Assembly (NCBI GenBank): GCA_014898425.1
Contig: RCSZ01000006.1
Location: forward strand, 62,001-126,000
Direction: 5' to 3'
Length of the DNA stretch: 64,000 nt
Source: Botryotinia globosa
Lineage: Eukaryota; Ascomycota; Leotiomycetes; Helotiales; Sclerotiniaceae
The notes beneath the pieces are model-generated. The model ran no database searches, was not told the DNA's origin, and was given only the letters and a program-made list of their open reading frames with translations. How positions within the stretch are numbered: position 1 is the stretch's first letter; each line of letters opens with the position of its first letter. Of the stretch, positions 23,518 through 45,544 are shown piece by piece. A program made the translations under genes and the position numbers.

Positions 23518-25847
23518 TCATGCAGCTCTTCTAGCTGTTGTACTCATTAGTGTAATTTTCTTACCTTTTTTCTTCTTCCCTTGAGGTGCTGGTGGAGGTG
23601 TAGCACTTGAACTACTTTCTCCATTCAAGGACGCCGCCTGCATTTGAGCAATCAATGCGTCATTCTCTGCTTGAAGCTCTTGTTCCCAGCCCGGTAGCCA
23701 ACCATCATCCGCATTACTATTGTACTGAGGATGAAGATCAGGCGAAGCTGGTGTTACCAGTGTCGTTCCCCAAACAGTTCTTGGCGCAGGAGGGCTCGTA
23801 GATGGTGAAGCTAATGCTCCGAAAGAAGAGCCTTGACGTGAAGTCCAAGGAGGAGATGCATCGATCGAGTCAATAGATGCTGATGCGAGCTGGGTGTAAT
23901 CGATGTCGGAATAGTTTGCCGGGGCTATTTCGGGTTGCTTCTGTCTAGCCGTGGCCCAACGTGCATTTTCCTCTGCTTTTTCGGCACGCTGTCTATCTTT
24001 CTCCTCTCGGACCTCCTTGTCCCTATTACGTTTTCTTCGCCGCTCAATATCCTCTTTGAACTGATTCAAGATTTCTGGTTGAACAACATCAGTCCAATTG
24101 CATTCCAAAAATCCTACTTCGCAGCCAAATGGCAAATGTGCCAAATATTTGGTTCTTTTTCTCAATTCATCATCCATAACGTGAGTAGATACTCGTTCGA
24201 CGCGGGGAAGTAATGTTGAAGGAAATGATGCAAAATTTCCAAAAGCTGATTTGAGAATTCTGATATCGAGAGGAGCGAGATAATAATGAAGAAGAGCTTG
24301 ATAAAATAAATATGGGGCATCTGAATGTCTCTCGTTTGTTTGGGCATTCTTTGGACGTAATTGCCTGTCGTTTTGTTGGATGCTCCCTGAATGGGATTGT
24401 GAAGGATCTGAGATCGGAATAGGATTGGGCGAAGGTAGTGGTGGAGTCACTGTCGAATCCAATTGGAAAGGAACAGCCGATGGAGATAGCGTTGAGGTTT
24501 GCTGAACATAGTACATCTCTGGAGAATTTTCATCGACAGGATTGAACTGTATAGGTTGCCTTTTGGGCTTCTTCTCTGTTGGCTGACTTGGTGGAGGTGG
24601 CGGTCCACCAATGCCTTTTACTTTCTCCTTCGCATCGTTTACAGAATTGACCGCTTTCCGAGTCCACTCGGGTTCTTCTCCAAACATCAATTCATCCTCA
24701 TTCTCTTGTTGTTTCAATGCCTCAATTTCCAATCCAAATTGTTCCATCATATATTCCTCACTTCCTTTCATGATTCGAGCATAATCCGTAACCTCGGCAG
24801 CGAAATACCATGGAATATCTTCCGATTTATCGAGTACATCCGCACCATCTCTTGGCAGTGCCAAAGTGCTACCAGGTTGTCGCATAACCAATCGTAATAC
24901 AACATCTTCTCCTTCACGAGGGGCCGGCCCTTCTTGTCCAATATACCATCTGACGGGTCTCGTTTCTGAGCTATAGATAGTATCCCAACAGATTGGACAT
25001 GCCTTCCATCGAGCTTTTTTCTCCGGTAGAGGATTTGTGTCGTCGGTTGAGTGCATGTAGCGAATGAGACATGGTAGACAAAAAATGTGTCCGCATTTTG
25101 CCATTCGAGGAGCTACAGGATGCGAGAGACAGATTGGGCATGATGTGTCTTGTGATTCGGCAGATGCGAGAATTTGAAGAACATCATTCCAGTCTAACGG
25201 TTGATCTGCGAACAGAGCTTGCTGCTTGTAATCTCCATTTGGCCTGACTATAAACCGATAGTTTGCGTGAATGTACCTAGCTTTATCACTAGAATGATGA
25301 CCAGATCCAATTCCATATATATTTCCACGTCTTGTTCCTCTTGCGATTGTGTTTCGATAATCCTGTGGCCTAGGTGGAAGAGCGAAACTCATAAGATGTG
25401 TAATTGATGTTTGTCCTCTTCGACTATTGGCATTTCTCATAGCCGCCTGGCAGTATTAGCACCACTGATTGTCTGTAATCTGCTTATGAAAATGAAATAT
25501 CCTAATCATCTGCAATGAGCTGGTATTTTGTACTGTGCCAATTGCTTGCAATCTACCACTGGAACAGGGATGCAAATAATGGGGAGGTGAAGAAATATGC
25601 GACTTACGGATTCCGCCATAGCATCCTCATCCGCGAGCCTAGGTTTCTTGGAATTTCTATGTTGTTTTCGTTGACTTTGGTTGTTTCTAGCAGCCGCAGA
25701 TATACCACTTGATTGACTACCGGTGCGCCTTGTATTTGACTCGAAACTTGGAGATGTAATTTGACTCTGTTGTTGTTGAGTGGGATTATGTGCGGTACTG
25801 AGAGATTTTCCACCAGGCGATGACGCGCTTTGCTGAACGGGGTTCAT
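23518..25847 (-). CDS. RING-finger E3 ubiquitin ligase, RNF10/Mag2 family
   Basis: Two exons (25847-25608 and 25446-23518) join in phase 0 to give 722 residues. The first exon is a Ser/Gln-rich leader ending in a basic patch (KKPRLADEDAMAES). Exon 2 gives the conserved RNF10 segment (ITHLMSFALPPRP, YRFIV) and a RING at about 183-233: CPIC, then CGHIFCLPC and CPIC. Further on are a PWYF-containing segment, a C-terminal part with FYQALLHYYLAPLDIRILKSAFG (the RNF10/Mag2-specific region), a charged helix and a lysine-rich end with ITLMSTTARRA. Established knowledge: Mag2 and RNF10 mono-ubiquitylate 40S ribosomal proteins such as uS3 during ribosome quality control. A GTAAGA near the 3' end could be read as a splice donor, but reading through gives the expected family C-terminus. 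The gene is head to head with a Ubp3/USP10 homologue, separated by a dead transposon. Confidence 0.92.
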
Positions 25848-26568
25848 AGTTCAAAGCCTTTAGATATAGAGACTTCTCAATGTTCCAATCCAGGCTCGAC
25901 AATCAAATGGTCTCTCGGGCTGGGAATTCGATTGAACGTGTAAATAGAAAAGTATCAGATGATATGATATGGCTCTAAGTAGTGTATCTTCATCTGTCCT
26001 GGTGGTCCTATGGGGATGTCTGGTTGCTCGATAGATTTGTTGCACTTTTCAATGTTCTCGATCAGATCCGATCTGATAATCGTCGGTCCCTCGGATAAGA
26101 CAATCGGGTGTAAAGCTGTGGTCGAAAAGTATGAAATACAAAGCTGGAGTAGAACGATTGAACAAAAAGAATGAGATGGTTGGTTAAGGATGGGGCAAAC
26201 TGATAGGACGAAGTAACTCTAATATGAAAGGTAAAAAGATCCAGGTCCAGGTAGGTTGATTTTGGAGAAGATTTCAGGCGCCACAAGGACGTTGTTGATA
26301 GAGGACAGGAAGAGTCACTCCAGATTCCAAGGCTACCTACGAGTACCTAGGTATGTAGTACTTTTGATGAGGATGAGGGGCGATTTGAAAGTTCCAGTTC
26401 CCTCAATGTTATCGGTAATCTTGTAGGGAAACATTAGAGACATAAGACGCAATTAGATCGTTCGTCATACCATCCTGTCCTTATGTACTCAGATAGCTAG
26501 AGTAGGTATTATGGGTGGGTATGTTTGAGACCATGAAGAAGATTTAAATAAATGTATGAAGATATATA
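25848..26568. other. Upstream region of the RNF10/Mag2 gene
   Basis: Leader and promoter of the E3 gene, up to the transposon target site. It contains the palindrome TACCTAGGTA at 26344-26353. I see no other gene. Confidence 0.6.
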
Positions 26569-26591
26569 CAGTAAAACCTCTCTATAAGGAT
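26569..26591 (+). repeat. Left terminal inverted repeat of the transposon
   Basis: 23 bp starting CAGTAAAACC, immediately after a TA; it matches the reverse complement of 28606-28628 at 22 of 23 positions. Confidence 0.93.
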
Positions 26592-26697
26592 ACCGGTTTT
26601 TGTGGTCATTTTTAAGAATATATAAAAATATTCTTATATAAAGATTTATAAATGAAAATAATGATTAATAATTAAAATAAGAATTTAATGAATATTA

Positions 26698-27048
26698 TTA
26701 AATAATATAAAGCTTTTTATATAATATTTTCTTTCTAATCTTCTTCAAAAACCCTTTAAAATCAATATTATTATCATCCCCTTGAAATTCGAATAAATCT
26801 AACTTTTCTAATACTTCTACAACTTCTTTATATAATATATATATAGAAGGCTTTTAATCTTTAATATTATTTTCAATCTCCCTTTCAACTATATCATAAA
26901 TTACTATTAGCTTTTCAATAATATTATTCTTATTATAATCCTTAATACATTTCTTTTTAGAATAAATAAATTCATTTATAGGTATCAAATTATTATAAAA
27001 TTCGATATATTTTTGAAGAGATTATTATATTTCAATAACTTGATTTTC
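26698..27048 (-). pseudogene. C-terminal remnant of the transposon's transposase, stop-riddled
   Basis: On the minus strand one frame of 117 codons keeps coding character for about 350 bp and ends in a TAA at 26700-26698. It reads acidic and aromatic near the end (EVVEVLEKLDLFEFQGDD, then DFKGFLKKIRKK), which resembles the C-terminus of pogo/CENP-B-like fungal transposases. The only interruptions are TAA codons at places where CAA (Gln) would fit, the change RIP makes on the coding strand. Farther upstream toward the right TIR the frame dissolves into AT repeats and I cannot follow it, so the DDE residues were not located. Confidence 0.7.
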
Positions 27049-28605
27049 CTTTTTTTTCTATAAAGTTATATATTCAGAATTATTCTTTTTATTAATATCA
27101 TCATTTTTAGTATATTTTTTTATTAATATTGATTTAAACCAACATATTTATATTATACTAATTTTTATATTATTCCAAACCTTTTTAATTTATTATATAA
27201 CAAATAGAAGATTAACAGTTTTATTCAGAATCTTCTCTTTTTCAAATTATACAAATATATAATTTATTTAGAAATATTAATATTGAATCTTAAACTATAC
27301 AATAATATTTTAATCAAAAAATTACCATTTAGAAATAATATTTTTAAATAACCAACATATTTCAATATATATAAGTTGACCTAAAAATTAATAAACAATT
27401 GAAATATATATATTAAAATTATTTATTATAAATAGAATCTTATAATTTTTATATACAAATTTGATATTCAACTTTATTAAATAATTAGTTATAATTTAAA
27501 TAATTATTTATTTAATTATATTCAAATAATATTTGATTTTTAAATAATATTTATTAATATATTTAAAATATTAGGGATTATTGAATTTTGTAATTATTAA
27601 TAAAACTATCTTTTTATTTTTATTTATATTATATATAAAAACAATTATAATTCGATTTTTATACAACTTTTTATCAGATTGTTGTTTAATTGTAAATATA
27701 TATATAGAGAGTAGTTTTCATTATAAATCAGTTTTATTTATATTAAAGATATTCCTAGATTCGAACTTTTTACAATACATTCTACAATACTCCATTTGTA
27801 TAAAAGATTTAATAGAATTTATCTTTACATCTATTACCTCCCTATATCTAATATATTCAATAATATAATATTATCATTTAAAACTATTAAACCAATTATT
27901 GCTTCATTTAGAAAAAACAAAATCTTTATATTGAAAAAGCAATTTCTAGAATTCTTTTGTTTTTTTTTAAATATATCTTCTATAACTATAATATATAATT
28001 TCTATATATATTATTGCTATTCATATAAAATATAATTGTATACAAAATAATTAATAAGTATTTTATATTTAATAATAAAATATTAATTCTTATAAGAATC
28101 GAAATTAAGATATTTATATATAAAACTAAATATAATAAAGCATTACCCTTACATAAAAGATTATCCTGTTTTTTATTTGAAACAAATAATAAGATCTTTT
28201 TGATTTTCTCCTTTGATAATTTGTATTCGATATAATTGCTGATATTTTATATTATTTATTATAGATTTTTTTTAAGGGATTAATTGAGAAAGATTTATAA
28301 TAAATATTATATTCAAAATTATTTAAATAATTATAATATTAATATTAATATTAATAAATAAATAATAAATTGAAAAAAAAAGTTAATAAAATTAAATATA
28401 AATATCAAGAATATTGAAAAAAAATGAGAAAATGAGGTTAAAGCAAATTATCTAATTAATATATTTAGAATATATATAACTTTGGGATTAAGAAAAATAA
28501 GGATATTTTAATAAAGGGGTTTTAAGGATATAGATTATTTTTAGGTCTAAAAATTTTTGGGATCTAAAAAAAATAAGGATAATAGAGATTATCCTTATAG
28601 AGGGG

Positions 28606-28628
28606 ATCCTTATAGAGAGGTTTTACTA
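28606..28628 (-). repeat. Right terminal inverted repeat of the transposon
   Basis: Reverse complement of the left TIR with one mismatch at the outermost base (C to T in TIR orientation), followed by the TA target duplication at 28629-28630. Just inside, CCTTATAGAG is repeated once more. Confidence 0.93.
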
Positions 28629-29216
28629 TATATCTTATTAACTCACTTCAAAGCATTACCTAGGTACATTTTTTCCAGTTCGAAAGGCCATGTATTACAT
28701 TCCCACCTCATGTGTGATATGAAAGGATTCATTCATTTCTTATATCATTCTCGTCGGCGTAGAATGAGGGCCAGTCCAATTTAATTGTTCTAGGTACATA
28801 TAATAAATATATATAGGTCACTCCTCTATGGTTTGTTTGGGGGCAAAAATTCTTGGCAAGGCTTTCACGTTTTTGGCTCAGTCATCTTCTTTTTTGATCT
28901 CCATAATTTTGGAGGACTTCGGAAATCTATCTACCCCAAATCCAACAGGATAACACAAGATCATATATTTAAATAATAGTTATATCAATAGCTTTATTTA
29001 TGCAGGTTTATCTTTGAAGGTACTGCCATCGCGCGCTTTTTAAATATAGAGATCTCTTTTCTATTTAATGCGCTAGCACTTTGGAGAATATAGGTACTCA
29101 AAAGAGCTCCCCCCCATCTAACGAAGAGCCAATATCAGTTTCGCGCGACAGCTCCTGCCAATCCAAACCAACCTGGACGAGGTAGGTTTGGAAAGAACTA
29201 ACTTCAGCAAGCCGGC
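28629..29216. other. Upstream region of the Ubp3/USP10 gene
   Basis: Between the transposon and the deubiquitinase start codon. It has a second TACCTAGGTA palindrome at 28657-28666, only 29 bp from the element's end. It is moderately AT-rich on the left and normal on the right. I see no gene. Confidence 0.6.
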
Positions 29217-32026
29217 ATGATGAACGGTCGTCATCTGCCGGCAGGGCAAGGTATGCAACAAGACCTAGGAAGACGGAGACCTTATAGTCATCAAGCTCAA
29301 CCATATCCACCGGCGGCACCTCTGTACAATGGGTACATTCACCCGTACAACGCGAATTATTACCATCCACAACCATTGCCTCCTCAATATTATAATAATG
29401 GCTTGACTCAACAGTATAACCCATACCAACACTATGGTCGCTCGCCTCCGCCAATGATGACGCATTATACTCACCCACCACCACCTCCGCTTCAACCCCA
29501 AGCACCACCTTTCGTTCGACCTCAGCCATCTCCTGCTATTGCTGCCTCTCACCCGCCAGTAGTTGCGTCGTCTTACCAGCCAGCGCCCGCGCCTCCACTA
29601 CCTCAAACTCCCTCGAGCGTCTCAACACAATCGTCCAACACCCTTTCTGCAGGACCTCTCACGCCCCCAACCCCACAAATACAACCCGTTGCTCAGTCTC
29701 CACCACCAACTCCCAAACACTATATACCTTTTCAGGCACCTGTACGTCATACTCTCAAAAACGCATTACTCAATTGCTAACATCACAACTAGCTGCCTTG
29801 GATATCCCCCAACACTACTGCACCCTGGCCGACCAGACGGCGTCGGAAAAGAAAGCAGAGTCCAGAGTTATCTACGAATCTTGTGGAGCTTCCAAGTCTA
29901 GACAAGGAGATTGATACTGAGTCGAAGAAGGGCGTGGAGACGTCAGAATCATCGTCAGAACCAAAGCCGAGCATTGAAGAAGCTTCAGAGCCTACACCTG
30001 AAACACCTACTACTACCCAAGTTCCATCAGAAGACACTGAATCCACAGTGCCAACTACTCCATCTTCTACAAAAGCCTTGTCTCTCCCTGCAGGTGGAGA
30101 AGTAACTCTTGTGGCTACAAAATCCCAGCGAGCTACTACTGTCCCTGCTGTCCCTGCCGTCCCTGCCGTCCCTGCCATACGTGCCATTACAAAATCTCAC
30201 CCGAAAAGTACACCGTCGACGAATTCTCAAAATGCCAATGGCCAAGATGCAGCTGAGGTAGATGTGACCAAATCCGAAGTGACAAATGAGAATGATATCA
30301 ATGGCCCTACTACTGAAGAAGTCAAGGAAACACCTCCCCCTGTCAAAGCATGGGCTACACCACGAGCTTGGACTGGCCTTTTTGGTTCATCTGGCGCTCC
30401 TACAGCTCTAACCACTGTCAATGATGGACAGAATGGATCCTCCGAATTCGGCAAAAATAATTCGGAATCACTAGCTGAAGCATTGCGCTCATTCAAGGCC
30501 GAAGCCAAGGACTCCAAAATATCATTTCTTGAGCCTCGAGGTCTCGTGAACACCGGCAACATGTGCTATATGAACTCGGTCTTACAAGTTCTCGTTTTCT
30601 GTACCCCTTTCTATGACTTTCTAGATCAAGTTAGCAAGAAAGCAGCGCATAGCTTCAAGAGTCAAACACCTCTAATTGATGCCATGTAAGTGTACCAACA
30701 ATGGATTCTATGTGATTGTCACTAACAACGTACAAGGATCATGTTTATGCGGGAGTTTTCAGTTATTGATTCTGCAAAATCATCTGAGCAACTCAAAATG
30801 AGACTTAAGGAAGGAGAACTTGAGCAATATGGAGATTCTTTCACGCCAGATTTTGTCTACGATGTTATGCGACGTTTACCGAGATTTGTCACAATGCAGG
30901 TTAGTTTGAGTGTGTCCTTCAGGGTTGTTTTTACTAATATATGCCACAGAGGGGGCATCAACAAGACGCCGAAGAATTCCTTGGATTTTTACTTGAAGGG
31001 CTTCATGATGAATGTGTACATGTCATGAAGTCAAGTGACTCGAGCAAGAATTCGGCTGTCACCACACCCATGAACGTACCTTCGTCTCCTATCAGCGATA
31101 CTGCGAGTCGACGCGGATCTGTTGACGACGTATGGCAACAGGTTGGACCTAAACAAAAAGCTGCTATTACTAGATCTTCTGGAACTATACTTACTGGTTC
31201 GCCAGTCACTAAAATCTTTGGTGGTAGCTTGAGATCCGAATTGCGTGTACCAGGCTTGAAAGACTCCATTACTCTTGAGCCATATCAGCCACTACAACTG
31301 GATATTGGTTCCCCGGATATCCACAACATCGTTGATGCCTTGAAAGGTCTAACACATTCAGAGGTCCTTCATGGCGATTTCAAGTCTCCAAAGGGTCCCA
31401 ATGTAACCGCGACAAAGCAAGTATTCATTGAGACAGTACCCCCTGTACTCATCTTGCACTTGAAGCGTTTCCAATACGACAACACTGGCGGTACACAAAA
31501 GATTTGGAAGAAGGTTGGATATCCTTTGGAACTCGAATTACCAAAGGAAGTCTTCCCAAGAACTAAGCGTAGTGTTTTTGCTCATGATGGCTATCCAAAG
31601 TATCGTCTAATTGGCGTTGTCTATCACCACGGTAAGAATGCTAGCGGTGGACACTATACTGTAGACGTCAGAAGACAAGATGGGAAGGAGTGGATCAGAC
31701 TTGACGACACTGTCATCAAGCGTGTAAGGAGTGAAGATGTAGCTGAAGGAGGAAGCGAAGAAGATCCAAAGGTTTTGGCCGCTGCTTTGGAGGCTCACAA
31801 GAAGGATAATTCATCGTCAGGAAACATTTTTGCTTCAATTGGAGAAGAAAATGGAGAAACTGAAGAGGATGGATGGAAGCAAGCTAGTGGGTCTGGAAAG
31901 AAATGTTCAAGCGTATTAAATGGCGCTTCCACACCAAAGTCCAAATCTGTCACTGGATACGGGGCTGGTAAATCCTCACTCATGGATAACAAGGTCGCGT
32001 ATCTTTTGTTCTATCAGAAAGTATGA
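29217..32026 (+). CDS. Ubiquitin carboxyl-terminal hydrolase, Ubp3/USP10 family
   Basis: Four exons (29217-29741, 29793-30685, 30737-30899, 30950-32026) join in frame to give 885 residues. Residues 1-175 are Pro/Gln/Tyr-rich and low complexity; a Thr/Ser/Glu-rich linker follows, with a short VPA repeat from a 9-bp DNA repeat (30141-30178). The USP catalytic domain starts near PRGLVNTGNMCYMNSVLQ, with the catalytic Cys at about 433, RGHQQDAEEFLGFLLEGLHDE just after the third intron, and the His box GKNASGGHYTVDVRR with His at about 762. It ends with AYLLFYQKV. Ubp3/USP10 enzymes remove ubiquitin from 40S ribosomal proteins and take part in ribophagy and vesicle traffic, in yeast with the cofactor Bre5 (G3BP in animals). 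The first intron has a clear TTGCTAAC branch site. It is divergent from the RNF10/Mag2 E3 gene. Confidence 0.95.
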
Positions 32027-33281
32027 GGGTCTTATTGGTGTAATGATAGGGCTGGGCACGGTGGATAGAAGGTTGATGAGGACGGCGATGGTCGGTGGAG
32101 GAGGCCGGGCAGGTCTTTGAATGCGATGTCATGATTGATTCTCAAAATGATGAAAATTACGGGAAAATGAGATGAAATGACGAGAAGAGAGATGATTCGT
32201 GCTGAAGGCGCGGTCCCTTTCAAAAGTTAGGTATCCATGTTTCGCTATTCAGCAAGGAAATTTTGGATGGGCGTTTGACCTAGTCTTATATTAGGGTTAA
32301 CAAAAGATGCATTGCAACTTTCTTGTACATTACTTATTCGGATATTTTCCGAATTTTGGCATCATTTCTATGGCATGAGCGGTTGGCGCATGTTTAGGGA
32401 GGGAATTGGCGCGCAAAATACAGTATATGTTACGAGGAAGTTCTATGTATAATATCTAATGGTTATTCGCAACCGACCATGGCAATAAAAATTTAGCGAT
32501 GAATAAGGAGTCACATAATGTTAGATAATATTTTGTGTTGGACTCAGCTGGGATGCATCATCGAGTGAAACGCAAGTCCGATTATGTTGAGCTGCCTACC
32601 TACCTAGTTGGTATAAAGATTAACAAAGCATCATACATCCGGTTGGTGATACAATGTTTCGACTATTCCTTTTATGTTGGAATCGATGAGTTGGTTGAGG
32701 CAAAGAGCCCCGCAACTATTTGTTGTCACTACCTAGACAACACTTGATACACCCAAGATATCTAATACCGACATAATAATACACTTTAATACGTCTAATC
32801 AATACTCCCTGACTAAGCACTATTATCGATATCGTATTCGTAACTTAAGTTTAATAGGTCGTAGGTACACCCATCCGCACATTGTTATCCTTGCCCCTTT
32901 ATTAAACTCATGTCAAACGTAATTTGTCAATTAAGATCCCCATCTTTTACTAGGGTTACTCGATTCTCGAACGCTTTATTTGAAGGAGTCACAGGGGATG
33001 AAGGATGATCAATCCGACCCAATTGTATGGCTTCCGAGTGGCTCGACTGAAACGGGAAACGGGAAAGTAAACAAATATTAAATTTAAATAATTCCCAATG
33101 TAAAATGGAGACTGACTTGATTCTCATAATTTTGTTGACACTTTTCCTTGCACGCGTGTGAAATCATGATCTTTGAGCTTCTATTATAGCACTTTCCTTA
33201 CAAGCGCTTCATTTGAAATTACATGTGGTAAATTATTGGTTTATACTCGTCCCAACTATCGTTCCGTTCCGAAATTACACA
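32027..33281. other. Intergenic region, no supported gene
   Basis: 3' flank of the deubiquitinase and promoter of ERG4. It contains CTACCTACCTAG at about 32595 and otherwise nothing I can assign. Confidence 0.55.
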
Positions 33282-35161
33282 ATGTCTGAAGGACGCGAGA
33301 GATATTCTTTGCGGCAGACGCCAAAGTAAGTACTCACTGTTATCTCTCCTCTTCTATTTTCATTGGAGAGAGAAGTCTAATAATTTATGCAGAAAAACAG
33401 AACGTGCTGGTTTCGTCGAGACTCCACGAATCCGTCGCCAGAGAAAGTCACAATTCCCAGAAGACGCAGACGATTCTTCCTCCGCGACAGATAACCCGCC
33501 ATCCAGGATGAGATCTTCGAGTCGAAAAGTCAACATGGTCGAGACAGCAACAGCCAACGATCATATCAGTAATGGCGCAGCAATCAATGGCTTTACTTCC
33601 GCATTGAATGACTCTAATACGATCGAATCGTTGAAGAGTGGAAGCGTAAATGTCAAGAGCGGAACCGAGGAGAAGGCAGTCAACGGAAAATCTACAAAGG
33701 TTACAGACGATCCAAAGATTGATTCTTCTGGCCATTTCGATTTTGGTGGCTCTTTCGGCGTTAGTGCTATGATGATTGGCTTCCCTTGTCTCATGTGGTA
33801 TATGTGGATTGGAGCAACATACTATGATGGTAAATTCCCCACACCGGAACCAGGTCAAGAGTTCCTCGATTTTGTGAAACATCTGGGTGATCTCGTCTAC
33901 ACAGGGGCATACCCAAGTCTTCGTGCCTGGAAAATCTATTGGATTTTCTTCGTCTTTGAGGCTGTCTTGTATTGCCTCATGCCAGGAGTTTGGGGTTATG
34001 GTAAACCGCTTCCTCATGAGGGAGGTAAGCAATTGCCATACTATTGCTCTGGAATTTGGTCTTTTTATTTCACCATCATCACCGGGGCTGTTTTGCACCA
34101 CTTGGACATTTTCAAAATCTATACTCTCTTAGATGAGTTTGGACCAATAATGTCGGTAGCCATTTGCTCCGGATTTTTGGTCTCAATTGTTGCTTATTTG
34201 TCGGCTTTGGCACGTGGAGCTCAACACCGAATGACAGGCTATCCAATTTATGACTTCTTCATGGGTGCCGAGTTGAATCCAAGAATGTTCGGTATCTTGG
34301 ATTTCAAAATGTTCTTCGAAGTTCGTCTACCTTGGTTCATTCTCTTGGGTCTTTCCTGTGCCGCTGCTGCAAGACAATATGAACAATATGGCTATGTATC
34401 AGGTGAAGTCGGATTCTTGATCATGGCTCACTTTTTGTATGCAAATGCATGCGCTAAAGGAGAAGAATTGATCATAACAACCTGGTATGTAGATCTCTGT
34501 ACATACCTCACTAAATACAGTTTACTAACTCTTTTAGGGACATGTACTACGAGAAATGGGGATTCATGTTGATTTTCTGGAATCTCGCGGGAGTTCCTCT
34601 CAGTTACTGTCACTGCACCATTTATTTGGCCAACCACCCACCATCTGAGTACTCGTGGAACAAGTACTTCCTTTATTTCTTGTACACAACGTACTTATTC
34701 GTATACTGGGTCTGGGATACCACCAACAGTCAAAAGAACAGATTCAGATCCCGTGAACGCGGAACCGTCACAGATCGCAAAGCATTCCCTCAATTGCCAT
34801 GGAAGGAGGTTATGAACCCACGTGTCATCAAAACCAAAACCGGTGACTCAATTTTGGCTGATGGCTGGTACGGAAAGGCTCGCAAAATCCATTACACTTG
34901 CGATTTCTTCTTCGCTTTCTGCTGGGGACTTATTACTGGCTTCAAGAGTCCATTCCCTTGGTTTTATTGTGTCTTCTTTGCCGGCATGATCTCTCATCGT
35001 GCATATAGAGACATTCAAAAGTGCCGGGAGAGATATGGAGAGGCTTGGGACGAGTACGAAAGATTGGTTCCATATCTGTTCATTCCAGTAAGTTCCGCCT
35101 TATTTCCATCAATCTGATCGGCTCTAGTTCGTTGCTAATCCCATCAAAGGGCATCTTTTAA
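33282..35161 (+). CDS. ERG4: Delta(24(28))-sterol reductase (ergosterol biosynthesis, last step)
   Basis: Four exons (33282-33325, 33393-34484, 34538-35087, 35150-35161) join in frame to give 565 residues. It reduces the C-24(28) double bond of the ergosterol side chain with NADPH in the ER membrane. After about 110 hydrophilic residues comes the sterol reductase core: [85 protein letters not shown] and [13 protein letters not shown], which match ERG4 rather than the C-14 reductase ERG24. [10 protein letters not shown] and YGEAWDEYE lead to the end. The last exon codes only GIF and stop, giving a FIPGIF terminus equivalent to the FIP..F end of yeast Erg4; without that splice the protein would end VSSALFPSI. 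The N-terminal extension is longer than in yeast. Confidence 0.95.
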
Positions 35162-35884: not shown

Positions 35885-38800
35885 ATGGTGGATATCAGAA
35901 TTGACAAAAATTTGTTTCAGGAACGATTATCACATTTTATATCATCATGGAAAGCTGATAAGAGAGGCGGCGACGCGATTTTCAATGGCGCAAATAGTAT
36001 CTTGGTGTTGATGGGAAAGACGGAAGATGTGGCAAGCTTTCAGAAAAATAATGCGATTCATGTGAGTTTAAATACCTGAGAAACGTTTCATGAGAAAGTA
36101 CATTGGAGGGACGGTCGAATGCTGATGAAGAAATAGTTTTGGTTATTAGGCTACGAGTTTCCTGCGACGCTCTTCCTTTTCACAGTCGATACTTTATACA
36201 TTGTGACAACGGCAAAGAAAGGTGCGTGAATCATCATTCTATATGCGCCACAGGTTGAAAGCTAATATTTGAATAGCGAAACATTTGGAACCTTTGAAAG
36301 GTGGAAAGATTCCTCTCGAGGTCTTGGTTAGAGGCAAAGATGCAGCAGCCAACGAGAAGCTTTTCACAAAAATTGCAGATGTCATTAAATCTTCAGGGGT
36401 GAGTCATGAACAATATTACTATGCGCAACAAGAACAGTCTAACAAATCTTCGTTTGTAGAAGAAAGTCGGAATTCTACCAAAAGATACATCAAGTGGTCC
36501 TTTTATCGATGAGTGGAAGAAAATCTATACCGAAATTAAGGATGTGGAAGAAGTAGATATTGCGCCAGCATTATCTGCTGCAGCTCTGGCAGTAAAAGAC
36601 GAGAATGAGTTGGTAAGACTCTAAATACGAGGTGGAAGAACTGGCTGATGCTAATACATTCTGCAGCGCGCTATGCGAAATTCCTCAAAAGCATGTACTG
36701 CACTCATGAACCCATATTTCGTCGAGGAAATGTCAGGTATTTTAGATGAAGAAAAAAAAGTCAAACATAGTGCCCTGGCCAACAAAGTGGATGGCAAATT
36801 GGACGACGCCAAGTTTTGGACTTCCGTGGAGCTTCCTAATAAACAGAGGATGCCAAATGACTTCGATTCATCACAATTGGATTGGACCCATGGACCTATC
36901 ATACAAAGTGGTGGAAAATACGATTTGAAGATGAGTGCTCAAGTCGATGATGAGTTGTTGCATGCTGGTGTCATCATATGTTCTATGGGTCTTCGATACA
37001 AGACCTACTGCTCCTTGATCGGCCGAACTTATCTCGTCGATCCAAATAAATCCCAAGAGAGCAACTACAGATTCTTATTGCAGGTTCACAATCTTGTTAT
37101 GAAGGAAATTCGCGACGGCGCGCATGTCAAGGATATTTACGCCAAAGCTTTAGCCCTCATCAGAACCAAAAAACCTGAGTTGGAGAAGCATTTCTTGAAG
37201 AATGTCGGAGCTGGAATCGGTATCGAAACAAGAGACCCTACTTTACTCCTGAATGCCAAGAGCACTCGAAGCTTAAAAGACGGAATGACTCTTTGTGTCA
37301 CTACAGGATTCAATGATATCGAGAACAAAGATCCTCAAGACAAGAAGAGCAAAATCTACTCTTTGGTATTATCGGATACTGTTCGTGTCACTCAAGCGGA
37401 GCCTGTTATTTTCACAGGCGATGCCCCCTCGGAACTTGATGCGACCTCATTCTTTTTCAAGGATGAAGAAGATGAGCCTGCACCAGAACCAAAAGCTACC
37501 AAGGCAAAGAAGGATTCGAGTGTTGGGGCTGTCGCAGCTAAAAATATCACCAAGACAAAACTCCGGGGTGAACGATCAACTCAGATTGACGAAGGTGCCG
37601 AAGCCAGGAGGCGTGAGCATCAAAAAGAGCTCGCAAAAAGAAAACAAGCCGAAGGTCTTGCAAGGTTTGCCGAAGCTACTGGTGATCAAAATGGTGTTGC
37701 TGTGAAGAAATTCAAGCGATTTGAATCTTACAAGCGTGAGAATCAATTCCCTCCAAAGATCAGAGATCTCGCTATTGTCATGGACGCAAAAAACTCAACT
37801 GTTGTTTTACCCATTATGGGCCGTCCAGTTCCTTTCCACATCCAAACTATCAAGAACGCCAGTAAGAGTGACGAGGGTGAATTCTCATACCTTCGAATCA
37901 ATTTCTTATCTCCTGGTCAGGGTGTTGGTAGAAAAGACGATCAGCCATTCGAAGATGTTTCAGCACACTTTGTCAGAAGTTTGACATTCAGATCTCATGA
38001 TGGAGATAGATTTCAAGACATTGCCAATCAAATCGGTAACATGAAAAAAGATGCTGTTAAGCGTGAACAAGAGAAGAAGGATATGGAGGATGTTGTTGAG
38101 CAAGACAAGTTGGTGGAAATTCGAAGTAAGTTTGCAATTTGTAGTCATTCTCTATTTTCTTCTATAGTTACTAACATAACCAGATCGTCGTCCAATTGTT
38201 ATGGACAACGTTTTCATTCGTCCAGCTATGGATGGTAAACGTGTACCCGGGAAGGTTGAAATTCATCAGAACGGTCTTCGATACCAATCTCCTCTAAATC
38301 TTCAACACCGAGTTGATATCCTTTTCAGTAACGTCAAGCATCTTTTCTTCCAGCCTTGTGACCATGAATTGATCGTCATCATTCATGTGCATCTAAAGGA
38401 TCCAATTTTGATTGGTAAAAAGAAGACCAAGGATGTTCAATTCTATCGCGAAGCTACTGATATTCAATTCGATGAAACTGGAAACAGAAAGCGAAAGTAT
38501 AGATATGGCGATGAGGAAGAATTCGAAGCAGAGCAGGAAGAACGAAGACGTCGTGCTGATCTCGATCGACAATTCAAAGCATTTGCCGAGAAGATTGCCG
38601 ACGCTGGTAAGAATGAGAACGTTGATGTTGACGTACCTTTCCGTGAACTTGGGTTCGGTGGTGTACCAAATAGGTCCAGTGTTTTCTGTCAACCTTCTAC
38701 AGATTGTTTGGTTCAACTTACTGAACCTCCTTTTATGGTCATCACTCTTGAGGATATCGAAATTGCTCATCTTGAGCGTGTTCAATTCGGACTCAAGAAC

Positions 38801-39283
38801 TTTGACATGGTATTTGTTTTCAAGGACTTCCACCGTGCTCCTTACCATATCAATACCATTCCTGTTGAATCACTTGAAAATGTCAAGGAATGGTTAGATT
38901 CCGTCAATATTCCATTTTCCGAAGGTCCACTCAATTTGAATTGGCCAACAATTATGAAGACTGTTACAGCCGATCCTCATGGATTCTTTGAGGATGGTGG
39001 ATGGGGCTTCTTGGCAACGGAATCAGATGATGAAGGTGGTGATGAGGAAGATGAGGAATCTGCTTTTGAAATAAGTGATGATGAAATGGCGGCTACGGAA
39101 GAAAGTTCGGATGAAGATAGTGATTTTGATAGTAATGCAAGCGAGGATGAAGGAGAAGAGGATAGTGATGAACAGAGTGAGGGAGAGGATTGGGATGAAT
39201 TGGAGAAGAAGGCCAAGAGGAAGGATATGGAGAGTGGATTGGAGGATGAAGAAGAAGCACCCAAGAAAAAGAGAAAGCATTAA
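35885..39283 (+). CDS. SPT16: FACT histone chaperone large subunit SPT16
   Basis: Six exons (35885-36061, 36137-36221, 36277-36398, 36460-36612, 36667-38125, 38184-39283) join in frame to give 1,031 residues, the usual Spt16 length. FACT destabilises and reassembles nucleosomes during transcription and replication. The N-terminal aminopeptidase-like domain (about 1-430) includes [13 protein letters not shown] and [13 protein letters not shown]; it is known to be catalytically dead. A charged linker ([22 protein letters not shown]) follows, then the dimerisation and middle PH-like domains ([36 protein letters not shown]). The C-terminus is strongly acidic (repeated DEE/SDED) and ends in a basic KKKRKH nuclear-type signal. 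The four 5' introns are short and close together. It is convergent with the kinesin gene. Confidence 0.97.
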
Positions 39284-39916: not shown

Positions 39917-42900
39917 TTAATCCGCCAGATAATCCTCTCTATCCACATCCACATCCCCCTCTGCATCTACATCATCGCTATCTCCACTCCCATTATCTCT
40001 CCTCCCTCTACTATTATTCCCACTCCCATTCCCACCTCTACCCCCACCCCCAGAGAAATACCCCTGATCAATTTTCCAAATCCACTCTACCTTCTCCCTC
40101 TCGCTCCTCGCTCTAAACAACCACGTATTATTTGTTCCGTACACTGCAAATACCGTTTCTTCTATTTCTCTTCTGCTCTCCCCATTACCATTGCCATTAG
40201 CATTACCGTTGCCTCTCCCTCCATACCCCATAATTCCCATGCCCATTCCACTTCCGCTCCTTCCTCGGCCTCCATATCCATAAATGCCTCCTATGCCGCT
40301 ATTGCTCCAACTTTGCTGTGCACCCGCACCCGCATCAGCAGGACTACTATTCCGACTTGCATTTCTACTCGCATTCCCACTCCCACCCTGTCTTTCATTT
40401 CTCAACAATTTCGCAATCTCAGGACTATGGTCCACCCTTGCATTTCTCAATCCAACCACATTTACCTCTTCCCCGCTATTCGGGCCCGCAACCGCATGAA
40501 TATGGAGATACGGTCGTCTGAGCTCTACGAATCTGCGTATCCATTTCGTGCTATCCGCGGAAGGGACTAGAAGCATTCCTGCTTTAAGCACACTGGGATT
40601 CTTTTTGATTTGAGAAATAGTTGCGAGATGCTGAGGTATGGATGGGATAGGGTGGGCGTGTGGAATGGGCGAGGTTTGACGGGATCGAGATGTTTGGCGG
40701 GAGTTGGCGGTGGAAGGGTGAAGTGAATTTGAGAAATTTGATGGACGGGGTGAGTTTGAGCGGGAAGTATTGGATATGAAAGAGGCTGTGTGGAAGAGAG
40801 ATGGAGCGGGCGAACCATTGATGGGTGGTTCGATATTAGTTGGTGTAAGAATGGTTGTTGATAGATCGCGGCAGAGATGGAAGTATTTAGTAAACTTTTG
40901 AAGAAGAGCGGTTTGGTGTGGGTTGTATTCGGATTGATTCTGGGACTTGTCCTTTTCTTGACTTGGATCATGAGGAATAGATTCGGTGCTGATGGCAGAT
41001 TCCGACTTTTCCGTGATTTCCTTATTGAATTCACCATCCCCATGTATACCTAGAGCATTTCCATCAACAGATGATGGGAGTGCCTCATCTATTGATAATG
41101 ATGGAAAACTTTCCTTTGTAGCTGGCGGACTGACAGGGAGTGGTATGTCGGCTGGATCTCGATTGATCACCTGTGGAATCGAAGGAGCGGGTACTGATAT
41201 TGATATTGGTACTGGTGCTGGTGATGATGCGATACGTCTCAACAAAGGCTGAGCAGCATCGATTTCTGCCAGTCTCTGTCTCTTTCTCCTCGCCGAAATA
41301 AAATCTTTAACCAGACTAATACCTCTCGGTGTCCAATTCGTAAGAGCTTCTTCCCCTTTAACATAGTCTTCCAATGTATTCATTCTCCACAGATCACTCA
41401 CTCTTTTTACGGCCACTGGACGAACAGAGATAGAGTAAATACCAGTCATAGAATGAACAATTCGTACACTTTGAAATAATGATGCGAACATTGATGTAGA
41501 ACGAACGTAATTACGCGACATGATTTGAGAGCAAACATCCATATTGAAAGTCATTGGGCGAGACAACTTCTCGGATTTCACATCCCATGAAAGGGACATT
41601 TGAACTTTGTACTTATCTGCTGTTACCCGATCAAGGAGTAAAGATTCATGAGCACTCGAGTCCCATTTTCCAACAATGCACACATTGCTGGTGCCGTTTG
41701 CATTTGCTTTAACAATGGGCGTGGAAAGTAATCTGAGGTAGAGGGGAGGAGTCGAAGGGGAGCTGAGATCCGGACTTTTCCCAATGTGATCAACGAGTTG
41801 AATTCGCCCTACACGTAAACCGCTGACATCCGACCAAGGTAAAGCATCACCGGAATTATGCGTCAAGGTAACAGCGATTCTGCGTTGTAAGCCTTGATGA
41901 AGTTGGAATGTTCCTTGGTCAAGCTCACTCGTTTGAATCACCTCAACTGCTGGATAATCACCACTTTCGGCCAGCTCCAGTATTTGAACTTTAGCAAATA
42001 CATCATGTTTCTCTTCAGAATAGAACTGCGACTCTGATATACGAGCACCCTTGCGCTTCTTCTTGGGTTGGGGGATGTTGTCTCGCATATCGTCCCAACT
42101 TAAAAGTTTATCCAAATGCATTGATGAAACTTTGGCAAAGATAGCCACACGAAGAGAAACATCTTTAGGGCCGAACATTGGAACGCTCATACTATGAACG
42201 CTCTCGAATCGGATTGGACCTTCATCAAAATCTTTAATCATCTGAGTCGTTGTGACGCCGCCTTCATTTGAAGCAGGAGGTATGAACAGTTGACCATGAA
42301 CTTCTGTGCCTTCCCGCTCAGCGAATCCTATCATCTCATGCATAACAACATTAAACTTCAAAGTGTTTGAAGGGGCTTTTGCTGAAGATGGTTCCAGTGA
42401 AAGCTTGATGATGCCAATAGCATGCATTGTAAATGGCGAAAGAACATCAAGAGTAAAGTCCTGAACTCGACTCTCAAAAACTGCGGATAGAGAGACATCA
42501 ACATCTCCAACATGTGTATACTGTGGCATACAAGTTTCCATGAAAGGATTGTCGAGTCGAAAATGTTGAAGGTACTCCGGCCGATCAAGGTACTGATGCA
42601 TCTGCCTCATCTTCCGGATACGATCCTGAAGTTTATCGAGACTCCATAGATGAGCCACATTATTCCTGTAGTCTATTACCCGTACGCCAATGCAAGGTTT
42701 TGTTGCATCTTCGAGATGAAAATCATCCCCCTCTATATCATTAAGAACCATATCATAAGAAGAACATAAAGCGTGCCCTGTGTCAACAACAGCAAATTGG
42801 AAAACAACATTCTCATCCATTTCGTGACTCATTATTTGCGCTTCTTTCAGAATTGCTGCGTTTTGAAATACAGCTTCAGCCATTCGAACATATCTTCGTC

Positions 42901-45544
42901 CTTGCCAATGTTTTGCAACTTTCTCGGCAATCGCAATTTCTTTCTCTGATAGTGGAGGTGGTCCATCTGGTCCCGATTTTACCGGGGACAACTCTTGTAA
43001 TTTCTCTTCATATTCTTTTCGCTGAACCTCCAATTGTTTGAGCATCTCCTCTTTAACTTCTCTGAGTGTTTCTTCCATTCTCACTTTTTCTTTTTTGATT
43101 TCTTCAACCTCGACATTTGAGGTTTTGGCTGTCTCAAGTTGTTCCTGAAATTCTTCTCTTTGCTTTTCTAATTGGACTTGCATTTCTTCTCTAACTTCAC
43201 GCATTTTGTCTTCGACTTCTCCTTGTTTGGGCGTTGATGGCATGGTCAATGCCGTGTCCAAAGAGAAGTTATCCAAAGTGCCGTTTGAAAGATACTTTTC
43301 TCGCATAGGATACGAGGTTACAGAGTCTAGATCATCTTCCAAATTTGCAGTTGCACGTTCAGCCCTTGCTCTCTGAACGTCCTCGAATAAAACATTGAGC
43401 TCCTCATCGGACAAACCTGCAATCTTTTGATCGGTTCCTAAAATAGCTCCAGCTGCCTCACGTCTTGCTAGTGACCAATCAGAAAGACCTCGTCCAGGCA
43501 CTGGGGAATCTGCTCGACTACTACCATCAAAATCGAGATCGGAGATGGCTTTGCTGAATGTTCGATCATGGGTTGGCCGAGGGGTAGATGAAGGCGAGAA
43601 TTTGTCCCAATCTTTGAAATTTTCTAATTGGTTAGCAGTAACAGAATGCCGCAGGAGGCTCTGTTCTGCGCGTTCCGCTCGAGCCTCGGTTGGATTGTTG
43701 AACCTAAAGATGTGAAAGTCGCCAAGAATAACTCTGAAACCACTTCTCAACCGAGTTGGCTTTTCGACTCTCTGTCCATTGACCATCACTGCTGCTCCTT
43801 CATTTGGTATCAGAGTGACCACATTATCGACATTCTCAAAAGTGCAATGCTCATGTAATATACGAGTTCCATTCAGCCGAATTTCCGCCGCATGGGCTGC
43901 ATTCGTATCAACATTTCCAACTGAAGTTGACCCAGGTTTGAGGTTGTACACAAGACATTCTGCTAACAATGGATCATCGGACAAATTCACAAGATGAGGC
44001 ATCTTCTTTGGTGTATGTAATCCAACAAATCCCTTCTCGATGCTGATACCCAATTCTTCCAGGGCCGCTTCTCGCTCTTTGTGGATTTCTTCAGTCTTTT
44101 GCAATTTCTCTTCCCAAGTCTGATTAAGATCCGAGTAGAGTTTCTCGCTTTGATTGAGTTGTTCGGTGATTTCCGCTTTCGATACCTTCTTCACAGCACC
44201 ATCCGATGAAACAATTGTGACCATTTGCTTCTCTAGAGGTGTACCTTCGGCATAAATCTCATCTGCTGGGCCTCCCCCTCCTCCGCTCCCTCCACCCCCT
44301 GTCAATTTACCTCGCAATTGAGCCAATTCTTCTTTCAACTCACGGATCATACGAGCATTCGCGTCCTCGTTTACAACTGCGTGATTCTTGATTCTCTTCG
44401 CACTATCAGCATATCGCAAGGTACTTAAAGTTTCATCGAAATTTATATCTGCAGGACTAATAGCTGCAATCATAGCTGTCATACTATTTCCTCCCAGAGA
44501 ATCTTTTAGAAGCCAAGTCAACACACTGTCTCGGTAAGGGACTTGGTTCCCCTTTCCCACTTTCTTCTTCTTTCCTTCTGATAAGTCGGCCAGCGCAGCA
44601 ATAACTCTACCCAGTGTCGATAGAGATCTGTTAATCTCCGCACCTTCTTTCAATCGAGCTCCAGTTGCACCCGTAGAATTTGCTCGCTCGGAACCTGCCA
44701 AATCGACCAAACTAATCTTCGCAACCTTTTCCATTGCCATCTTTGTTTCAACGTCCAATCGTTTCTGAGTCAAAGTCAAAGTGAAGACCGCATGACTTCT
44801 ACTAGAAGTTTCGTTCATATTCGTAGCTGCAACGGTACGGGCTTTGTTTCCCTCATCCATCAAGTTTTCAATCTCTTGAAAGCTACTCACAACCAATTTC
44901 GCCAAGTCTTCCACATATGGTCCAGTCGAAGGATGTTCTCGAACTTTCAGGTTGCCTTTTGTCGACGGGTTTAGAAGATCTCGTACTCGTTCATTGTAAA
45001 TTTCCAGATAAGATACCTCGACCGTGCATTTCAAATTCTTGTCCTGTTGTAATTCCCCTATCCTCTCAAACATATCCTGACAAATCTTCGGAATGACACC
45101 AGCATCTTTTCCATATCCCATCATCGAGTAAGATTTCCCGGAACCCGTTTGACCATATGCGAAGATACAATTATTGTAACCCTGAAAAGCATTATCCAAG
45201 AGAGGTTTTCCCAGATCGGTGTGGAGGTTGTCTTGTCCTGCGTAACTCGGATCATTTTTGTCAAAGGACCAGTATGAACGATCGAATGCGAAAACCTTCT
45301 GGCCCGAATCTCCCTTTCCACCCTTTGCATCTCTTGATTTCGCCTCATGTCCTTCTGGTGGGGTAATGACCGTTTGCGCATCTTTCATTTGCACTATACA
45401 TTTTGCTCCGCGATCGATCTCTATCCCGAGGTATCAGTCCTGACACAAAAATGGGGTTTGACAACATATCCACCGCATACCTCTACTGTTGAACGGCCTA
45501 CACCGCACAACGACTTTAATATTTCCACCACCACCGGGCGGCAT
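39917..45544 (-). CDS. Kinesin-3 motor protein (UNC-104/KIF1 type)
   Basis: Two exons (45544-45481 and 45420-39917) join in phase 1 to give 1,855 residues. The short first exon gives NIKVVVRCRPFNSR. The motor domain has the P-loop GQTGSGKS (about 111-118), switch I in NETSSRSHAVFTL and switch II in LVDLAGSERANSTGATG. After the neck come an FHA domain (about 510-590), a charged coiled coil (about 750-825) and the KIF1-type domain. A C-terminal PH domain begins at about 1629 (MLLVPSADSTKWIRRFVELRRPYL) and ends at about 1805 (NNTWLFRARSEREKVEWIWKID). Kinesin-3 motors carry early endosomes and vesicles along microtubules; the PH domain binds phosphoinositide on cargo. The PH domain is interrupted by about 90-100 Gly/Asn/Ser-rich residues, and a Gly/Asp-rich tail follows. 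The second exon is a single 5.5-kb frame. Confidence 0.95.

What the first reader, a model, noticed from the sequence alone, without database searches (positions are those of the whole stretch)
23518..32026. Head-to-head pair of an RNF10/Mag2-type E3 and a Ubp3/USP10-type deubiquitinase
The two divergent genes belong to families that work against each other on 40S ribosomal proteins: RNF10/Mag2 adds mono-ubiquitin to uS3 and partners, USP10 (Ubp3 in yeast) removes it. Finding them as neighbours sharing one upstream region suggests co-regulation of a ribosome quality-control switch. Removing the transposon (2,060 bp plus one TA) leaves about 1.3 kb between the start codons, a normal bidirectional promoter. 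Sequence shows family membership and orientation; the functional link is inference.
Basis: partly seen in the sequence, partly recalled or inferred. Interest (0 to 1): 0.8.

Follow-up and report, generated by a model that had tools for sequence, protein, structure and literature searches.

The report
Linked ubiquitin writer and eraser genes
In this Botrytis-like fungus, two genes whose relatives add and remove the same ubiquitin mark on ribosomes sit side by side, and they are also neighbours in a range of distantly related fungi, which suggests that being together may matter but does not yet prove that they are regulated together.

Summary
A 722-aa RNF10/Mag2-type RING E3 (minus strand) and an 885-aa Ubp3/USP10-type deubiquitinase (plus strand) lie head to head in a Botrytis-like genome, each found once. 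A 2,060-bp AT-rich TA-flanked transposon lies between their start codons; without it 1,307 bp remain.

New result: the neighbourhood is old. Names and contig lengths in capped protein lists served as positional tags. In 21 of 21 species in both lists the genes share the same longest-contig length; of 12 with comparable locus tags, 11 pairs are consecutive and one is two apart (six classes among those looked up). In fission yeast the genes are numbered P8B7.21 and P8B7.23.

Limits: orientation elsewhere was not testable, and the RNF10 list did not reach Sordariomycetes or Eurotiomycetes. Neighbouring ERG4 is also linked (7 of 7 tagged species within three genes) and SPT16 belongs to the block in fission yeast, so slow decay of ancestral gene order is a serious rival. 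ERG4 lies on opposite sides of the pair in different species, which favours the pair as the conserved unit. Co-regulation of a 40S ubiquitin switch remains inference; the transposon weakens a shared promoter here.

The parts
23518..25847 (-). RNF10/Mag2-type RING E3 gene, 2 exons (25847-25608, 25446-23518), 722 aa
   Evidence: RING cysteine/histidine pattern in 21 of 21 aligned sequences, its own included
29217..32026 (+). Ubp3/USP10-type ubiquitin-specific protease gene, 4 exons (29217-29741, 29793-30685, 30737-30899, 30950-32026), 885 aa
   Evidence: Cys and His boxes in 24 of 24 aligned sequences, its own included
25848..29216 (.). Shared upstream region as assembled (3,369 bp; 1,307 bp without the transposon and one TA)
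26569..28628 (.). TA-flanked transposon with terminal inverted repeats, 2,060 bp, 15% GC, longest open frame 102 codons
   Evidence: 86 matching rows in the own genome with only 40 of 226 candidates scored
33232..35117 (+). ERG4/ERG24-family sterol reductase, next recognised gene after the Ubp3-type gene (open frames 33232-34572 and 34515-35117)
36655..39283 (+). SPT16 (FACT subunit), open frames 36655-38238 and 38180-39283 (5' exons not modelled); spt16 also lies near ubp3 in fission yeast

Best explanation
The locus is an old, linked pair of single-copy housekeeping genes: an RNF10/Mag2-type E3 that puts mono-ubiquitin on 40S proteins (uS3 first) and a Ubp3/USP10-type protease that removes it. 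Shown here: family features, orientation in this window, each found once, linkage in species of several Pezizomycotina classes, and near-linkage in fission yeast by gene number. Inferred: linkage is kept because it helps to keep the dose or timing of the opposing enzymes matched, through divergent promoters close together or a shared chromatin state, so that the ubiquitin state of stalled 40S subunits stays balanced. In this genome the transposon has split the upstream region, so any coupling here would have to act over 3.4 kb or not at all.
For: RNF10-UBP3 linkage in 21 of 21 testable species by identical longest-contig length; in 12 with comparable tags, 11 consecutive and 1 at distance two. 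The consecutive pairs include Leotiomycetes, Sareomycetes, Candelariomycetes, Coniocybomycetes, Lecanoromycetes and Xylobotryomycetes. ERG4 is next to UBP3 in the window and in Coleophoma cylindrospora, but next to RNF10, with UBP3 beyond, in Sarea and Candelaria, and next to RNF10 in Hymenoscyphus, so breakpoints seem to have fallen outside the pair. Fission-yeast ubp3 is SPBP8B7.21 (PMC3032702, passage) and the RNF10 type is named P8B7.23. Gene-order loss reaches 0.796 between Pezizomycotina species (PMC5937819, passages). In fungi only conserved divergent pairs tend to be functionally related (PMC2871058, section 8 part 1). Human RNF10 and yeast Mag2 mono-ubiquitinate uS3, and USP10 rescues ubiquitinated 40S subunits (PMC11604940, passages). 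Possible partners exist in this genome: uS3 with a tail reading IIEPK, and an NTF2-domain protein that may be of Bre5/G3BP type.
Against: ERG4, with no link to ribosomes that I recall, lies within three tags of RNF10 or UBP3 in 7 of 7 tagged species, so the neighbourhood as a whole is slow to change. About 20% of neighbourhoods survive even in the most diverged Pezizomycotina comparison. In fission yeast the names of both genes lack the 'c' of the reverse strand (rule recalled), so the head-to-head layout is not universal; in budding yeast they are unlinked. Ubp3 has other substrates. The transposon separates the upstream regions here. For 9 of the 21 species only the contig length is shared, which does not show adjacency. 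No expression data.
Confidence: 0.5

Rival explanations
1. Neutral remnant: the pair, ERG4 and SPT16 are pieces of an ancestral ascomycete gene block that has decayed slowly; adjacency has no function.
For: ERG4 is co-linked in 7 of 7 tagged species; SPT16 lies nearby in both this genome and fission yeast, SPBP8B7.19 against ubp3 .21; [quoted passage not shown] about 20% of neighbourhoods persist even in the most diverged Pezizomycotina comparison.
Against: 11 consecutive and 1 near-consecutive of 12 tagged species in at least six classes is more than a 20% background gives, although the species share ancestry and no formal test was made; ERG4 changes sides while the pair stays together in Sarea and Candelaria; families assigned from recall to other genes of the fission-yeast block (erd2, nop2), and HECT for mug30 (SPBP8B7.27), are not near the window.
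Confidence: 0.4
2. Conserved spacing for transcription reasons unrelated to the shared pathway: both are housekeeping genes and a common open-chromatin region cannot easily be broken without harming one of them.
For: Conserved pairs in PMC2871058 Table 1 include many with no obvious functional link (section 8 part 1).
Against: The insertion shows that the interval tolerates 2 kb of AT-rich DNA in this genome; in that paper conserved divergent pairs in fungi lean towards shared function.
Confidence: 0.3
3. Misassigned families: one gene is another RING E3 or another ubiquitin-specific protease.
For: Two of 13 ncbi names that carry a USP number give 21 and 2; some RNF10-type rows are named 'related to human transcription regulator Staf-5'; no direct comparison with human or yeast sequences was run.
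Against: Eleven of those 13 names give USP10 or Ubp3 (generic uniref names set aside); three RNF10-type rows are named P8B7.23; MAG2 = YLR427W = RNF10 is tabulated in PMC2198940 (passage); the USPs with solved structures that matched, such as USP2, 7, 8, 12, 15 and 46, score at most 84 bits.
Confidence: 0.04

Closest known systems
RNF10 (human), Mag2 (S. cerevisiae), P8B7.23 (S. pombe)
   Same: RING E3 with a complete C3HC4 RING and a conserved region before it (GQTSITHLM in 21 of 21 aligned sequences); found once in the genome
   Different: Substrate not tested here; gene adjacent to the Ubp3 type, unlike budding yeast
USP10 (human), Ubp3 (S. cerevisiae and S. pombe)
   Same: UCH protease with intact Cys and His boxes after a long, low-complexity N-terminal part; W-x-x-V-G-[PK] insert in 19 of 24 aligned sequences (that this insert marks USP10/Ubp3 is recalled)
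   Different: No FGDF motif (G3BP-binding motif of USP10, recalled) in any of the 24 aligned fungal sequences
Conserved divergent gene pairs in fungi, e.g. RAD16/RAD7 (PMC2871058 Table 1)
   Same: Adjacent and divergent here, adjacent in several Pezizomycotina classes, plausible shared pathway
   Different: The two products oppose each other; the pair is not in that table (section 8 part 1 read); orientation elsewhere unknown

Membership tests
RNF10/Mag2 | C3HC4 RING with all eight zinc ligands | tested here: met
   21 of 21 aligned sequences, own included; PF00097 above cut-off
RNF10/Mag2 | Closest named relatives belong to the RNF10/P8B7.23 family | tested here: met
   Three rows named P8B7.23 (Botrytis cinerea, Lachnellula suecica, Alternaria sp. 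MG1); most rows are unnamed or generic and a few say 'Staf-5'; MAG2-RNF10 equivalence from PMC2198940 (passage). That P8B7.23 is the fission-yeast RNF10 is recalled.
RNF10/Mag2 | Mono-ubiquitinates uS3 at the K212/K214 equivalent | not testable with these tools
   The uS3 tail here carries IIEPK; that this lysine is the K212/K214 site rests on recalled yeast and human tails
Ubp3/USP10 | UCH domain with catalytic Cys and His boxes | tested here: met
   24 of 24 aligned sequences, own included; PF00443 above cut-off in both exon parts
Ubp3/USP10 | Closest to Ubp3/USP10 rather than to other USPs | tested here: inconclusive
   11 of 13 numbered ncbi names say USP10 or Ubp3; matching solved USPs are distant; no tree with reference sequences
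Ubp3/USP10 | Works with a Bre5/G3BP cofactor | not testable with these tools
   An NTF2-domain protein exists on contig C7; an RRM-like stretch seen by eye was not reported by Pfam; binding not tested
Conserved divergent gene pair | Adjacency kept across classes | tested here: met
Conserved divergent gene pair | Head-to-head orientation kept | not testable with these tools
   Only protein records were available for other species
Conserved divergent gene pair | Co-expression | not testable with these tools
   No expression data

The most novel reading that the evidence does not exclude
A writer-eraser pair of the 40S ubiquitin mark has been held together as one genetic unit since early ascomycetes, inverting as a unit while neighbours changed, because matched supply of the opposing enzymes is under selection; the transposon insertion in this genome is a natural test of what happens when their upstream regions are pushed apart.
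Probability: 0.35. Interest if true: 0.7.

Novelty: new member of a known kind. Interest (0 to 1): 0.5.

Why it matters
If the linkage reflects selection, it ties the enzyme that marks stalled 40S subunits to the one that clears the mark at the level of gene order, and gives a simple genetic test, separating the two genes, of whether their relative dose sets ribosome quality control. It would also be an example of an antagonist pair among conserved divergent genes.

Tried and rejected
Searching viral contigs and genome contigs for stray fungal contigs, to read orientation in other species, found no relative. No paper held all four of RNF10, USP10, Mag2 and Ubp3, and a combined query needing five of six terms on E3, deubiquitinase, head-to-head pairs and synteny found none. 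A paralogue of the Ubp3 type was considered because a contig C17 place has a similarly split UCH match; the whole-protein search did not list it. Solved structures include no close relative of either family. ERD2, HECT and NOP2-type families, which might have widened the fission-yeast block, are not near the window. ERG4 was searched as a control for general gene-order retention and turned out to be linked as well; this lowers confidence in a pair-specific explanation. No structure prediction was run. A reading of the C7 NTF2 protein as NTF2 plus RRM was cut back to NTF2 only after Pfam reported no RRM.

The table was transcribed by eye: only species seen in at least two lists were entered (28, 31 and 25 species), each list shows only its best 120 rows, and species in one list alone were dropped. 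Different formae of Drepanopeziza brunnea and different species of one genus were not counted as the same species. Different contig lengths were found only in comparisons with ERG4: UBP3-ERG4 in 4 of 18 (Diplocarpon coronariae, Hypoxylon crocopeplum, Biscogniauxia mediterranea, Aspergillus udagawae) and RNF10-ERG4 in 3 of 15 (Sclerophora amabilis, Diplocarpon rosae, Cryomyces antarcticus); some of these rows may come from different assemblies. The chance figures printed treat species as independent and are not used.
Full report
What is there. The window lies in a 45.7-Mb genome of 27 contigs whose proteins are closest to Botrytis. On the minus strand, 25847-23518, is a two-exon gene for a 722-aa RING protein; on the plus strand, 29217-32026, a four-exon gene for an 885-aa ubiquitin-specific protease. 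Their start codons face each other. Between them is a 2,060-bp element, 26569-28628, with terminal inverted repeats, TA on both sides, 15% GC and no open frame longer than 102 codons. The own genome holds at least 86 matching rows (40 of 226 candidates scored): two further copies over nearly the whole length, one long copy split in two, and many short places that match only the two ends. Without the element and one TA 1,307 bp remain.

Family membership. The RING protein has all eight zinc ligands, as do all 21 aligned sequences, its own included. Three database names tie it to P8B7.23, which I recall as the fission-yeast RNF10; some rows say 'Staf-5'. PMC2198940 tabulates MAG2 = YLR427W = RNF10 (passage seen). 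The protease has the Cys and His boxes in 24 of 24 aligned sequences, its own included; of 13 ncbi names that carry a USP number, 11 are USP10 or Ubp3, the other two 21 and 2. Solved USPs match weakly, 84 bits at most. A reference tree was not made, so the Ubp3/USP10 assignment is strong but not formally tested. Each gene was found once in the own genome.

Conservation of adjacency. No other fungal genome was available as DNA, and scans of two contig collections found no relative. Names and contig lengths in the protein lists were used instead. Twelve of these have comparable tags: eleven pairs are consecutive (Sclerotinia borealis, Candelina submexicana, Sarea resinae, Xylographa soralifera, Candelaria pacifica, Chaenotheca gracillima, Thelocarpon impressellum, Caeruleum heppii, Cirrosporium novae-zelandiae, Diplocarpon mali, Lambiella insularis) and Mollisiaceae sp. 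is at distance two. Six of the eleven were looked up and fall in six classes: Leotiomycetes, Sareomycetes, Lecanoromycetes, Candelariomycetes, Coniocybomycetes and Xylobotryomycetes. For the other nine species, among them the dothideomycete Zopfia rhizophila, a shared contig length is weaker evidence, more so on megabase contigs. The lists hold the 120 best rows each; the RNF10 list shows no Sordariomycetes or Eurotiomycetes that I recognise, so those classes are untested.

Control. The next gene, ERG4, was searched as a yardstick. It shares the contig length with UBP3 in 14 of 18 species and with RNF10 in 12 of 15; in seven tagged species it is within three tags of one or the other in all seven. 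So the neighbourhood as a whole is conserved, which counts against a pair-specific cause. ERG4 changes sides, however. It is next to UBP3 in the window and in Coleophoma cylindrospora (RNF10 not seen there). In Sarea and Candelaria the tag order is ERG4, RNF10, UBP3. In Hymenoscyphus ERG4 is next to RNF10 (UBP3 not seen). In Rhynchosporium graminicola and Sarcosagium one number lies between ERG4 and RNF10, where UBP3 would fit but was not seen. The simplest reading is an inversion of the pair as a unit; a move of ERG4 across the pair is not excluded.

Deeper. Fission-yeast ubp3 is SPBP8B7.21 (PMC3032702, passage), spt16 is SPBP8B7.19 (PMC3034197, passage) and the RNF10 type is P8B7.23 (names). 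The window has RNF10, UBP3, ERG4, SPT16 in the same relative order. The neighbourhood therefore seems older than the split of these subphyla. By the naming rule for strands (recalled) ubp3 and the RNF10 gene are on the same strand in fission yeast, with one number between them, so the head-to-head layout is not universal. In budding yeast MAG2 is on chromosome XII (PMC9860037, passage) and UBP3 is YER151C, chromosome V by its name.

Mechanism. RNF10 and Mag2 mono-ubiquitinate uS3, and USP10 rescues ubiquitinated 40S subunits (PMC11604940, passages). Ubp3, called USP10 in mammals, also acts in 60S ribophagy and other pathways (PMC8122580, passages; PMC7037965, passages), so the opposition of the two enzymes is only part of its work. 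The genome has uS3 with an IIEPK tail and an NTF2-domain protein that could be the Bre5/G3BP partner; Pfam reported no RRM in its open frame. Co-regulation is inference: no expression data were available, and the transposon separates the two upstream regions in this genome.

Background and novelty. Gene-order loss between Pezizomycotina species ranges from 0.03 to 0.796, and the authors call conservation between the most distant species of a subphylum close to nonexistent (PMC5937819, passages); by their figure about a fifth of neighbourhoods survive even there. Twelve linked of 12 tagged is above that, but the species share ancestry and no formal test was made. PMC3219968 (passages) describes filamentous ascomycete chromosomes as shuffled by frequent inversions, and PMC3500266 (passages) reports that adjacent co-regulated ribosome-related pairs are retained more often; UBP3 and MAG2 do not occur in its main text. 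The pair is not in Table 1 of PMC2871058 (section 8 part 1 read), which lists only the most conserved pairs. The listings show no paper on this linkage; most listed papers were not opened and supplementary tables were not searched. I rate it a new member of a known kind.

Noticed in passing
window 33232-35117: The ERG4-type reductase has no Sclerotiniaceae row that I recognise among its 120 best hits (best 72% in the top row), although Sclerotiniaceae head the RNF10 and UBP3 lists. Annotation artefact or something particular to this copy.
   Followed up: no
window 26569-28628 and own genome: The transposon family has a few long AT-rich copies and many short places matching only both ends (about 75 bp left, about 130-180 bp right), as expected of a MITE-like derivative.
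   Followed up: partly
window 29217-29850: The Ubp3-type N-terminal part holds an LPW stretch (residues 176-178) that is invariant in the 24-sequence alignment and may be a partner-binding site.
   Followed up: no
window 39917-45433: A long minus-strand open frame for a KIF1-type kinesin lies tail to tail with SPT16.
   Followed up: no
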